From Myxococcales bacterium (lineage in GTDB: Bacteria > Myxococcota_A > Polyangia > Haliangiales > Haliangiaceae): 41,102 nucleotides of DNA. The position numbers and the translations under genes were made by a program. The notes beneath the pieces were generated by a model. That model saw only the letters and a list, made by a program, of their open reading frames with translations, was not told where the DNA came from and made no database searches. Below, one piece after another: positions 17,652 to 21,691 of the stretch. The DNA lies in contig JAEUJY010000097.1 of assembly GCA_016794525.1 (NCBI GenBank), positions 1-41,102 on the forward strand, in the 5' to 3' direction. The stretch's first letter is position 1, and every line of letters starts with the position of its first letter.

Positions 17652-18629
<978 letters not shown>

Positions 18630-18641
18630 CGCTGGTGGTCG

Positions 18642-18796
18642 ACTCGGGGGCGCTGGCTGCGGGGCCCCGCCCAGCGTTGCCGGGCCTCGGACCTCAGGTC
18701 CACTCGGGGGCGCTGGCTGCGGGGCCCATGGGCGGCGTTGCCGGGTCCCCCCCACGTCCTCACGTACCGACGTACGCTCCGGCGTGGGTCCCCCCC
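18642..18796. repeat. 60-bp imperfect tandem duplication plus inverted repeat, 3' of FHA gene
   Basis: Two copies with a 60-bp period begin at 18642 and 18702. The first 26 nt are identical (ACTCGGGGGCGCTGG and on) and GCGTTGCCGGG is conserved later in each copy. Downstream, CCCACG (18751-18756) and CGTGGG (18783-18788) form an inverted repeat inside a direct repeat of GGGTCCCCCCC (18743 and 18786). Together with 18797-18860 and the hexamers at 18861 this fills the gap between convergent genes; no credible gene lies in it. Confidence 0.7.
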
Positions 18797-18860
18797 GTCG
18801 CCTTGCCCATGGGCCTCCTCGCCGACGCGCGACGTGACGCGTGAGCCTCCGCGAGATCCC

Positions 18861-18998
18861 GGATCCGGATCCCGATCCCGTTCCGGATCCCGATCCCGAT
18901 CCCGTTCCGGATCCCGATCCCGATCCCGTTCCGGATCCCGTTCCGGATCCCGATCCCGATCCTGTTCCGGATCTCGATCCCGTTCCCGATCCGGATCA
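18861..18998. repeat. Hexanucleotide repeat array, 23 units
   Basis: Twenty-three in-phase hexamers of the form (C/G)G(A/T)TCC occur, with a 24-nt higher-order pattern (GGATCC, CGATCC, CGATCC, CGTTCC) early on. On the minus strand it reads GGATCG/GGAACG/GGATCC, close kin to the coding repeat at 9217. It begins about 23 nt past the stop of the small minus-strand gene at 19022. Confidence 0.9.
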
Positions 18999-19021
18999 CC
19001 AACCCGCTCCCGATCCGGCGA

Positions 19022-19234
19022 TCAGTTCTGCGCGAGCTCGATGGCGTGCAGGGCGTGCCAGCGGCGGACGGCCTCGGCCTTGGCCGGCTCGATCAGCTCG
19101 GCGACCGCGGCGATCTCGTCCGGATCGCCGGTGGGCGCGAACACCTCGGGCGGGCACAGCACGAAGGCGAGCACGTCGAGGGCGCGGGCGGGATCGGGGG
19201 TGAACCCGCTAGCGAAGACGGTCTCGGCGGCCAT
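19022..19234 (-). CDS. Small uncharacterised protein
   Basis: This is a possible 70-residue acidic, Ala-rich, soluble protein: MAAETVFASGFTPDPARALD at the start, then VLAFVLCPPEVFAP and a helical end AVAELIEPAKAEAVRRWHAL followed by HAIELAQN. No signal peptide, membrane span or known motif. It stops just before the hexamer array and lies 65 nt downstream of the tail-tube gene on the same strand, so it could share that transcript. No clear Shine-Dalgarno sequence. The coherent helix pattern favours a real gene, but length and composition leave doubt. Confidence 0.45.
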   Translation of the reverse strand: MAAETVFASGFTPDPARALDVLAFVLCPPEVFAPTGDPDEIAAVAELIEPAKAEAVRRWHALHAIELAQN

Positions 19235-19299: not shown

Positions 19300-20223
19300 T
19301 CAGCCCTGAGACGAGACCTCGACGCTCTCGATCGCCATCTCGACCTTCACCGACCGCACGTCCTCGTTGGCCGCGTCGAGCTTGTCGTGGGTGGCGCTGA
19401 AGATGCGGCACCCGTGGAACTTGATCTCGCCCTTGTCCTGCTTCGCCGAGTCGAAGTAGGTGATCCAGGCGTTGGTCGGCTCGGGCCGGGTGCCGTTGCG
19501 CAGGTCGCCGGCGACCTTGATGAAGTACGCGGCGTCGGGCTCGGGCACGTAGAACGTGATGTTGGGGAACTCGAGCTTGCCCGGGATCTTGAGCGGCTCG
19601 AGGCGACCGGCGTGGTGGTAGTCGATCGTCTTGGCCTTGACGCTGAACCCGTCGACCTTGGTCACGCGGTACTCGCCCGGCGCGCCCTCGAAGTGGAACT
19701 TGAAGTTGCAGCACTTCACGTGCTGCGCCCGCTGCATGCCGGGATCCTCGGGCGAGATGACGCCGCCGTCCTTGGGCGGCTCGTAGACCAGGATCTCCGG
19801 CTGGATCGTCACGGTGACGTTGGCCGGGTTCTTGTCGCTGGCGTCGAACTTGGGGAACGCGATCTCCTCGATCAGCGCGTCGGAGAACGTCCGGCGCGCC
19901 TTCTCCTTGTACTCGTGGTCGGCGGCGACCAGCGCGCCGTTGCGCCGCTGGCAGTCACCGTCGATGAAGGTCTTCATCCAGGCCCACATGTCCTGGCTCG
20001 CGGCCATCGGCGCGACGACCTTGATCGCCTCGTACTTGAGCTTGCCGTTCTGCTTGAGGTAGTTGCCCTCGGCCGGCTTCCGGTTGTTCTGGTAGGTGAT
20101 GATCTCGGTCGAGATCTTCCCACCCTCGATCGAGCGCACGGTCGTGACCTTGCCGCCGTCCAGCTCGAGCAAGAACTGGGCGGAGGAGTACAGCGGCTTC
20201 GAGACGGTGGGCGATGCGGGCAT
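19300..20223 (-). CDS. Tandem-duplicated phage/eCIS tail-tube protein (gp19-like), solitary
   Basis: This is a 307-residue protein made of two tube-fold repeats of the T4 gp19/phage tail protein family. Repeat 1 (about 12-145) has AQFLLELDGGKVTTVRSIEG, DMWAWMKTFIDGDCQRRNGA and a closing strand VTVTIQPEILVYE. Repeat 2 (about 165-303) has FKFHFEGAPGEYRVTKVDGF, SVKAKTIDYHHAGRL, ITYFDSAKQDKGEIKFHGCR and the closing VKVEMAIESVEV. Single-repeat members are about 145-170 residues. No sheath, baseplate, spike or ATPase gene lies in this window, so it is detached from any contractile apparatus. ATG 20223 has GAGG about 8 nt upstream. It may be a structural remnant, a cytoplasmic tube protein or a component of a system encoded elsewhere. 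Confidence 0.78.
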   Translation of the reverse strand: MPASPTVSKPLYSSAQFLLELDGGKVTTVRSIEGGKISTEIITYQNNRKPAEGNYLKQNGKLKYEAIKVVAPMAASQDMWAWMKTFIDGDCQRRNGALVAADHEYKEKARRTFSDALIEEIAFPKFDASDKNPANVTVTIQPEILVYEPPKDGGVISPEDPGMQRAQHVKCCNFKFHFEGAPGEYRVTKVDGFSVKAKTIDYHHAGRLEPLKIPGKLEFPNITFYVPEPDAAYFIKVAGDLRNGTRPEPTNAWITYFDSAKQDKGEIKFHGCRIFSATHDKLDAANEDVRSVKVEMAIESVEVSSQG

Positions 20224-20282
20224 GGATACCTCGGGCGATTGTACACGACGGGCGAGAGGCCCCGGCGGGAACGACTGGTCGC

Positions 20283-20930
20283 ATGCATGGTACGTTCAGC
20301 GACGTGGAAACCTTCCCCGCGCCGGCGGGCGCCGCGGCCCCGGCCGAGTTGGCAAGGCCGCGTCGCCAAAGGCGAAAGCGCCCGCGTCGCGGGTTCGCCA
20401 AGGGCGCGGCGGTCGGGGCGCTGGTGGTCATTCCGCTGATTTCTCTGGCGATCTTCGGGGTCGGCCGGCTGGGTCTCGGGGGCGAGCGCCCGTCGATGAT
20501 CCCGGCCCTGCGCCTGGTGTTCGTGTTCGCCGCCCTGCCCGGCCTGCTCACCGCGGGCGGGATCGGCCGGCTGGCCGCCCAGGCCAGCCTGGACGGCGGA
20601 CGCCCCCGCGCCGTGTGGGTCGCCGGTCGCGCCGCGGCGATCGCCGGCATCGGCCTCGCGGTCGTCGGCGCCATCCCCAACGGGGTCATTCCGGACTCCC
20701 ACGCCGGCTGGGCGATCCTCGGCGTGGCTGGGCTGGTGGCCGGCGCGCTCGGCGGCGTGGCGATCGGCCTGGCGTGCGGCGGCGCGATGCCGACGCTGGC
20801 CGAGCTCGGCGTGTGGCCGCAAGACAACGCCGTCGGTCGCGCCGCGCAGCGCGTGGTCGATCGCGCGATGCGGCGCCGGCGCGCGACGACGGTCGCGCCG
20901 CCCGCGCCCCCGGCCGATCCGCCGCCGTGA
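20283..20930 (+). CDS. Uncharacterised integral membrane protein
   Basis: This is a 215-residue protein. A basic N-terminal region (PRRQRRKRPRRGFAKGAA) precedes about four hydrophobic segments: GALVVIPLISLAIFGVG, LRLVFVFAALPGLLTAGGIG, AGRAAAIAGIGLAVVGAIP and WAILGVAGLVAGALGGVAIG. The C-terminus is cytoplasmic-looking and Pro-rich (APPAPPADPPP). ATG 20283 is chosen; a GTG 8 codons in is possible. The stop overlaps the next start as GTGA, so it is translationally coupled to the M50B-like protein and may assist it. No family recognised. Confidence 0.7.
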   Translation: MHGTFSDVETFPAPAGAAAPAELARPRRQRRKRPRRGFAKGAAVGALVVIPLISLAIFGVGRLGLGGERPSMIPALRLVFVFAALPGLLTAGGIGRLAAQASLDGGRPRAVWVAGRAAAIAGIGLAVVGAIPNGVIPDSHAGWAILGVAGLVAGALGGVAIGLACGGAMPTLAELGVWPQDNAVGRAAQRVVDRAMRRRRATTVAPPAPPADPPP

Positions 20931-21691
20931 GCGGACGGCCACGCCCCGAGTCGCTGCGCGCGCTGGCGCTGGCGCTGATGGCCAGCATGGTGCTGTGGCA
21001 GGTGCCCTACGGCACCTACGTGCTGTACCCGTTCAAGCTGCTCGGCACCTGGTTGCACGAGGGCAGCCACGCGCTGGCGATGCTCGCCACCGGCGCCGGC
21101 TTCGCGGGCATGGAGGTGTTCGCCGACGGCAGCGGCCTGGCCCACGCGGCGTCGCTGGCCGGCCCGATCGCGGGCGCGATCATCGCGTCGGCCGGCTACA
21201 TGGGCGCGCCGATCGGCGGCGTGATCCTGGTGGTGGCCGCGCGCGACGAGCGCGGCGCGCGGCGCACGCTGGCGGCGCTGGGCGCGGTGTTGATCGCGAC
21301 GGCGCTGGCGTCGATCTCGAACCACTTCGGCCAGGTCGCGATCGGCGCGACCGGCGGCGCGCTGGTGGTGATCGCGGCGCTGCCCCGGCCGCGGTGGCAC
21401 GCGAGCCTGGTCCACCTGCTCGCGGCCCAGGCCTGCGTCGGCGCGCTGGTCGACATCCGCGTGCTGTTCCGACCCAACCTGGTCGTCGACGGCCAGGTGG
21501 TCAGCGACTCCGACGCCCACGCGATGGCCAAGGCGACGCTCGGCACCGACGCGGCGTGGGCGGTGTGGGTGTGGGCCGCGCTGTGGCTGGCGTGGTCGCT
21601 CTTGCTGTTGTTCGTCGTGTTCCGCCGGCTGCGGCGCGCCGCCGTCAGCGCTGCACCGCCAGCCGCACCCGCACCTCCACCCGCGCCTTGA
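20927..21691 (+). CDS. M50B-like membrane metalloprotease
   Basis: This is a 254-residue multi-pass protein with HEGSHALAM at the end of an early membrane segment. It fits the HExxH-type zinc motif of the peptidase M50B-like family (site-2-protease relatives). Hydrophobic segments include LALALMASMVLWQVPYGTYV, HAASLAGPIAGAIIASAGYM, VLIATALASI, GALVVIAALP and AAWAVWVWAALWLAWSLLLL. A second zinc ligand, usually Asp in a later segment, is not certain. The C-terminus is Pro/Ala-rich and its last 47 nt overlap the 3' end of the convergent OmpA-like gene. A GTG start overlaps the preceding stop. The substrate is unknown. Confidence 0.72.
   Translation: MSGRPRPESLRALALALMASMVLWQVPYGTYVLYPFKLLGTWLHEGSHALAMLATGAGFAGMEVFADGSGLAHAASLAGPIAGAIIASAGYMGAPIGGVILVVAARDERGARRTLAALGAVLIATALASISNHFGQVAIGATGGALVVIAALPRPRWHASLVHLLAAQACVGALVDIRVLFRPNLVVDGQVVSDSDAHAMAKATLGTDAAWAVWVWAALWLAWSLLLLFVVFRRLRRAAVSAAPPAAPAPPPAP

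What the first reader, a model, noticed from the sequence alone, without database searches (positions are those of the whole stretch)
19300..20223. Solitary tail-tube protein with two fused tube domains
Seen: both halves carry the beta-strand pattern and landmarks of the gp19-like tail-tube family, about 145 residues each, with no other contractile-system gene in 41 kb. Known: tube rings are hexamers of single-domain subunits. Inferred: a fused dimer could build a ring from three chains, or the protein could have been repurposed outside a phage or eCIS particle.
Basis: partly seen in the sequence, partly recalled or inferred. Interest (0 to 1): 0.72.

Follow-up and report, generated by a model that had tools for sequence, protein, structure and literature searches.

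The report
Solitary fused double-domain tail-tube protein
A myxobacterial relative carries, far from its injection-machine genes, a stand-alone tube protein made of two fused tube domains, one of a family that also sits in the tube-gene position inside those machines and in other species has acquired export signals, so a syringe part appears to have been duplicated, scattered and partly reused.

Summary
The ORF at 19300-20223 (minus strand, 307 aa) holds two gp19-type tube domains, each over Pfam's cut-off. The AlphaFold2 model aligns over about 275 residues with the fused tube proteins of phages T5 and P74-26, which build three-chain, pseudo-hexameric rings. A fused tube subunit therefore has precedents in siphophages; I know of none in contractile injection systems (CIS).

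The gene is solitary on its contig, and the window is that whole contig. The same genome has a complete CIS on contig C149, with a divergent double-tube gene in the slot where sister lineages carry a single-domain tube. All double-tube proteins tested appear to descend from one fusion. The window's version is a conserved cytosolic ortholog in a fixed chromosomal slot: present in 22 of 22 CIS-bearing relatives where the slot can be read, absent from 6 of 6 CIS-less ones that keep the neighbouring gene.

Best explanation: an auxiliary, probably trimeric, tube ring acting in trans with the CIS. Other double-tube proteins carry Sec, lipoprotein or Tat signals, mostly in genomes without any sheath hit, so repurposing occurred, but not demonstrably in this protein. 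Its exact role is untested. New variant of a known kind.

The parts
19300..20223 (-). Solitary double-tube protein, 307 aa, no signal peptide
   Evidence: ORF; PF06841 twice; AF2 model pLDDT 85
19801..20181 (-). N-terminal tube domain
   Evidence: PF06841 57.1 bits; TIGR02241 54 bits, below its 62.4 cut-off
19321..19707 (-). C-terminal tube domain
   Evidence: PF06841 39.9 bits; VIA-align Z about 12-13.5 with eCIS tube chains
20238..20245 (-). TGTACAAT: extended -10-like element about 20 nt upstream of the ATG, conserved as TGTA(C/G)AAT in most orthologues
   Evidence: Upstream sequences of 20 orthologues compared by eye; promoter function inferred
19022..19234 (-). Conserved 70-aa ORF of unknown function next to the tube gene; orientation varies among relatives, so not a fixed operon partner
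   Evidence: Synteny; no Pfam match
20283..20930 (+). Divergent 215-aa probable membrane protein, conserved neighbour that marks the slot
   Evidence: Synteny; no Pfam match
20927..21691 (+). M50B-like membrane peptidase homologue; slot marker kept in CIS-less relatives
   Evidence: PF13398 115.6 bits; present in 33 of 35 genomes

Best explanation
It is a solitary, cytosolic paralogue of the fused double-domain tube protein of a contractile injection system encoded elsewhere in the same genome. Three chains probably close into one pseudo-hexameric ring, as in phages T5 and P74-26. The ring most likely works in trans with the CIS, as an alternative or auxiliary ring of its inner tube (comparable in logic to orphan hcp genes of type VI secretion). 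Shown: the two domains, one ancestral fusion, the predicted arrangement, the CIS-embedded homologue in the tube slot, and presence/absence that tracks the CIS. Inferred: trimer formation, incorporation into CIS particles, and the exact ring position.
For: Structure: the model over residues 11-307 aligns with the SH-Ab15497 tail protein (Z 18.7, 270 aligned), the P74-26 tube (Z 18.6, 279) and the T5 tube pb6 (Z 18.3, 279) at rmsd 3.9-4.0; one half alone aligns with eCIS tubes at Z about 13. T5 and P74-26 fused tubes form trimeric rings. Own genome: contig C149 has Pvc16_N cap, two sheaths, double tube, single tube, CIS_tube, GPD hub, base_V, gp25, Baseplate_J and Tail_P2_I. Slot: sister lineages have sheath1, single tube, p131, sheath2, tube B in the same order; Kofleriaceae-type genomes have the double exactly in the first tube's place. 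One fusion: 43 N halves form one clade (support 0.92) and the 43 C halves form one. Linkage in trans: double and sheath1 both in 26 order genomes, neither in 7, double only in 2 (59% and 75% complete), sheath1 only in 0. The solitary gene is beside M50B in 22 of 22 readable CIS+ genomes and no double exists in 6 of 6 CIS- genomes that keep M50B; empty site in L167, where the 70-aa and 215-aa ORFs lie 76 bp apart. No signal peptide.
Against: No experiment shows assembly or incorporation. The 22/22 versus 0/6 contrast rests on only about three CIS-less lineages, so it is not phylogenetically independent. The solitary gene is in a housekeeping neighbourhood with no effector, chaperone or CIS regulator in fixed linkage. 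The CIS already has its own double tube, so the need for a second one is unexplained. Multimers could not be modelled here, and AlphaFold2 may have learned the relative domain placement from T5-like structures.
Confidence: 0.6

Rival explanations
1. The protein has been repurposed outside any CIS particle: it forms cytosolic rings or short tubes with a housekeeping role, possibly linked to the neighbouring membrane peptidase.
For: Conserved, vertically inherited, in a fixed housekeeping slot beside an M50B-like gene. Relatives in sheath-less genomes carry Sec, lipoprotein or Tat signals, so the fold has been reused. A solitary double also occurs in a sheath-less Armatimonadetes MAG without a signal (L088).
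Against: Where the CIS is missing the solitary gene is missing too, although its neighbours remain. This protein has no export signal.
Confidence: 0.2
2. Within the CIS it is not a tube-body subunit but a three-fold adaptor or terminator ring, for example joining the six-fold tube to the three-fold spike.
For: Hub and spike proteins of contractile systems also use duplicated tube domains with three-fold symmetry (PMC5717097). T5 tail-tip proteins score nearly as well as tube-body proteins. Only a few copies of such a ring would be needed, which suits a separately expressed gene (inference).
Against: The CIS cluster already has a CIS_tube (PF19266) protein and a GPD hub. The highest full-length structural matches are tube-body proteins.
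Confidence: 0.17
3. It is a prophage or tailocin remnant without function.
For: Tube proteins are typical phage genes, and this one stands alone.
Against: Intact ORF, 31 invariant columns among 22 orthologues, fixed slot, conserved upstream element; no sign of decay.
Confidence: 0.03

Closest known systems
Fused tail tube proteins of siphophages T5 (pb6) and P74-26
   Same: Two tube domains in one chain; model aligns over about 279 residues, Z about 18; published as trimeric pseudo-hexameric rings
   Different: Non-contractile phage tails; 8-11% sequence identity in the structural alignment; pb6 has an extra Ig-like domain; here bacterial, in CIS clusters or solitary
eCIS inner tube and tube-initiator proteins (Afp1/Afp5, Pvc1, Alg1/Alg5, Streptomyces CIS tube; NCBIfam CIS1/CIS5, TIGR02241)
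   Same: Each half has the same fold (Z about 12-13.5) and PF06841; the CIS-embedded double occupies the tube slot beside the sheath
   Different: Those are single-domain proteins encoded in the cluster (hexameric layers in AlgoCIS); the window protein is fused, solitary and below the CIS1, CIS5 and TIGR02241 cut-offs
Orphan hcp genes of type VI secretion
   Same: Tube-type genes outside the main cluster, thought to serve a resident system in trans (PMC13098142)
   Different: Hcp is single-domain and often next to effectors; here fused, no effector neighbour, and vertically fixed rather than mobile
Duplicated tube domains of hub/spike proteins (gp27, VgrG)
   Same: Two tube-like domains, three-fold symmetry (PMC5717097)
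   Different: The paper states that pb6 and hub/spike duplications link their subdomains differently and are independent events; the model here matches tube and tail-tip proteins best

Membership tests
Phage_T4_gp19-like tube proteins (PF06841) | Profile match over the curated cut-off | tested here: met
   93.2 bits for the whole protein, both halves over 28.2 bits
Phage_T4_gp19-like tube proteins (PF06841) | Tube beta-barrel fold | tested here: met
   AF2 model and structural alignments
T5/P74-26-type fused trimeric tube proteins | Two tube domains in one chain | tested here: met
T5/P74-26-type fused trimeric tube proteins | Relative domain arrangement as in the trimeric ring | tested here: met
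   Single alignment over 270-279 residues at rmsd 3.9-4.0; prediction only
T5/P74-26-type fused trimeric tube proteins | Assembles as trimeric rings | not testable with these tools
   No multimer prediction or experiment available
T5/P74-26-type fused trimeric tube proteins | Part of a siphophage tail gene module | tested here: not met
   Housekeeping neighbourhood, no phage module recognised
eCIS inner tube proteins (CIS1 / CIS5, TIGR02241) | Curated NCBIfam cut-offs | tested here: not met
   TIGR02241 54.1 versus 62.4; CIS5 26 versus 260; CIS1 23.8 versus 220
eCIS inner tube proteins (CIS1 / CIS5, TIGR02241) | Encoded in a cluster with sheath and baseplate genes | tested here: not met
   Solitary; the paralogue at C149:9650-10594 does meet this
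eCIS inner tube proteins (CIS1 / CIS5, TIGR02241) | Present in assembled particles | not testable with these tools
   Needs purified particles and mass spectrometry

The most novel reading that the evidence does not exclude
A lineage of bacterial contractile injection systems replaced its six-subunit inner tube by a three-subunit fused tube, kept extra solitary copies as in-trans tube parts, and in other species the fused tube protein was repeatedly turned into an exported or surface protein after the contractile machine was lost.
Probability: 0.45. Interest if true: 0.8.

Novelty: new variant of a known kind. Interest (0 to 1): 0.6.

Why it matters
Fused, three-fold tubes were known to me only from non-contractile phage tails. 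A contractile system with such a tube would show that the tube's symmetry can change under a conserved sheath (median 88% identity here, against 28% for the double tube). The solitary copies and the exported relatives give a traceable series from machine part to in-trans part to independent protein, testable by particle proteomics, gene deletion and cryo-EM. It would also warn that gp19 hits far from sheath genes need not be phage remnants.

Tried and rejected
A complete contractile cluster close by: not on this contig, which ends at the window's edges. Fixed operon with the 70-aa ORF: rejected, its orientation differs among relatives. Effector pairing as for orphan hcp: no recognised toxin or effector beside the orthologues. 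Separate fusions for solitary and CIS copies: not favoured, since N and C halves each form one clade, although the C clade has low local support (0.24). My gene caller fails on low-GC or short loci (for example L171, and at first L087, L089, L090), so absence there was not used. Its call at 17852-18217 (-) is wrong; an FHA ORF runs on the plus strand. Literature searches for fused or exported tube proteins in contractile systems found no report, but only open-access papers are held.

Full report
CHECK OF THE OBSERVATION. The ORF lies at 19300-20223 on the minus strand and encodes 307 residues. Pfam's tail-tube model PF06841 matches each half over its curated cut-off: 57.1 bits for the N half, 39.9 for the C half, cut-off 28.2. 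The profiles of the two halves of 43 double proteins align with each other over 142 columns, E = 1e-19. The sequence also matches a Streptomyces CIS tube chain in the PDB (8bl4, E = 1.2e-5; title). The window is the complete contig C54 of 41102 bases. No other PF06841 or PF04984 (sheath) match falls on it.

STRUCTURE. AlphaFold2 with an alignment of 29 sequences gave mean pLDDT 85.3 and pTM 0.82. Foldseek ranks fused siphophage tube and tail-tip proteins first and eCIS tubes next. VIA-align 2 aligns the model from residue 11-14 to 307 with the SH-Ab15497 tail protein (Z 18.7, 270 residues), the P74-26 tube (Z 18.6, 279) and the T5 tube (Z 18.3, 279), at rmsd about 4 A. Single-domain eCIS tubes (PVC, AFP, AlgoCIS, Streptomyces) align with one half at Z about 12-13.5. 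T5 pb6 arose by duplication/fusion and forms trimeric pseudo-hexameric rings (PMC5717097). The same is reported for P74-26 (PMC10034513). A CIS-embedded double from another genome (L086) gave a model of the same quality and the same best matches. Trimer formation itself was not modelled.

THE GENOME'S OWN CIS. Contig C149 carries a complete system. Its order is Pvc16_N, sheath1 (405 aa), a double-tube gene (314 aa, C149:9650-10594), a 131-aa protein, a 60-aa protein, sheath2 (594 aa), a single tube (153 aa), a large protein, CIS_tube, GPD hub, base_V proteins, gp25, Baseplate_J and Tail_P2_I. The double in this cluster is too divergent for any Pfam hit but is found with the family profile. A second contractile-type cluster is on C34. 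A second solitary double is on C2.

THE TUBE SLOT. In other lineages of the same phylum sheath1 is mostly 70-76% identical to the window genome's and is followed by a single-domain tube of about 143 aa, then the 131-aa protein, sheath2 and a second tube. The Nitrosospira and Nitrospirales clusters share the order single tube, 131-aa-type protein, second tube. In Kofleriaceae-type genomes the double sits exactly where that first single tube sits. Compared with the CIS5 (adaptor) score, the CIS1 (inner tube) NCBIfam score is higher in the first tube than in the second tube of the same cluster, though CIS5 scores best in both and all are below cut-off. That the double is the main inner tube of these systems is therefore likely but inferred. 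AlgoCIS defines the usual roles: Alg1 builds hexameric inner-tube layers, Alg5/Alg7 the initiator (PMC8894135).

ONE FUSION, MANY COPIES. In a domain tree all 43 N halves form one clade (support 0.92) and all 43 C halves form one (low local support, 0.24). A tree of whole proteins puts the window protein in a well supported clade of solitary orthologues, whose sister group is solitary copies from other families of the class (98/100). CIS-embedded doubles scatter over the tree. Their median pairwise identity is 28% while sheath1 beside them has 88%, the 131-aa protein 78%, sheath2 67.5% and the single tube 53%. In the closest pair, L012 and L052, sheath1 is 96.5% identical and the double 21%. 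Cassette exchange or fast change at this locus is the likely reason (inference).

CONSERVATION AND CO-OCCURRENCE OF THE SOLITARY GENE. Orthologues lie beside the same divergent pair of genes (a 215-aa probable membrane protein and an M50B-like peptidase) and near accA, miaA and mutL (the last three named from sequence reading). In the order, 26 of 35 genomes have both a double and sheath1, 7 have neither, 2 have only doubles (59% and 75% complete) and none has only sheath1. The M50B neighbour is present in 33 of 35 genomes. Reading the coordinates, the double is within 3 kb of M50B in 22 of 22 genomes where the slot can be read (21 with a sheath hit, plus one 59%-complete genome, G015, without). 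In six CIS-less genomes with M50B no double exists. One clear empty site is L167, where the 70-aa and 215-aa ORFs lie 76 bp apart. Fisher's exact p is 2.7e-6, but only about three CIS-less lineages are involved, so the test overstates independence.

EXPORTED RELATIVES. Fourteen double-tube proteins in 13 genomes start with export signals: twin-arginine type (L117, L118, L206), lipoprotein type (L116, L212, L215, L213) and Sec type (L087, L115, L205, L209, L210, L211, L224). NCBIfam's Tat model hits L117 over its cut-off. SignalP was not available. A simple hydrophobicity scan separates the Sec and lipoprotein types only moderately and the Tat types not at all, so these calls rest on motif reading. 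L209, L210, L211, L213 and L224 are only partial profile matches. Of the 13 genomes, 11 have no PF04984 sheath hit, against 2 of 41 genomes with strong cytosolic doubles (Fisher p = 6e-8, again not independent). In the tree the five exported forms included fall in three separate places. This supports repeated reuse after loss of the machine.

SOLITARY DOUBLES ELSEWHERE. Nitrosospira sp. NpAV and Nitrospirales NPIRA04 have solitary doubles and a CIS on another contig with single-domain tubes. A Dehalococcoidia MAG (export signal) and an Armatimonadetes MAG (none) have a double and no sheath hit. MAG taxonomy and completeness are uncertain. Doubles are rare in the Nitrosospira family: 4 of 125 genomes have a long match.

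MECHANISM. Best supported: a cytosolic, probably trimeric, pseudo-hexameric ring that serves the CIS in trans, as an alternative or auxiliary tube ring (0.6). The logic resembles orphan hcp genes (PMC13098142), but without mobile context or effector neighbours. Rivals are a role outside the particle (0.2) and an adaptor or terminator ring (0.17).

COMPARISON AND NOVELTY. By fold and architecture it works like the T5/P74-26 fused tubes; it is not part of a siphophage tail. By domain family it belongs to PF06841. It fails the NCBIfam CIS1, CIS5 and TIGR02241 cut-offs. Literature searches found no fused tube in a contractile system and no exported tube protein, within an open-access library. New variant of a known kind.

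Noticed in passing
L012:9650-10594 and CIS loci L126-L142: The CIS-embedded double tube is hypervariable (median 28% identity) beside a sheath that is 88% identical; its tree scatters, suggesting cassette exchange.
   Followed up: partly
L117, L118, L206, L116, L212, L215, L213, L087, L115, L205, L209-L211, L224: Double-tube proteins with Sec, lipoprotein or twin-arginine signals, mostly in genomes without any sheath hit.
   Followed up: partly
L046, L112, L140: Two tandem double-tube genes in the same CIS cluster, between sheath1 and the 131-aa gene.
   Followed up: no
window 17652-18629 (+): FHA protein 40% identical over 121 aa to an FHA protein beside the CIS cluster (L225:18159); that cluster is followed by several FHA proteins and preceded by two large kinase-like ORFs (L012:1286-6970, named from sequence reading).
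   Followed up: partly
window 20927-21691 and L010:11022-11690: Both solitary double-tube lineages lie next to membrane-protease homologues (M50B PF13398; Rce1-like PF02517).
   Followed up: no
window 18760-19203: Low-complexity repeat stretch between the FHA gene and the 70-aa ORF, read as DPDPVP or SRSGS repeats depending on frame.
   Followed up: no
L117:8041-9420: The Tat-type double tube lies just downstream of a protein with an IgGFc_binding domain (238 bits).
   Followed up: no
L011 (contig C34:40001-60000): A second contractile-type cluster with one 815-aa sheath and a single 166-aa tube in the same genome.
   Followed up: no
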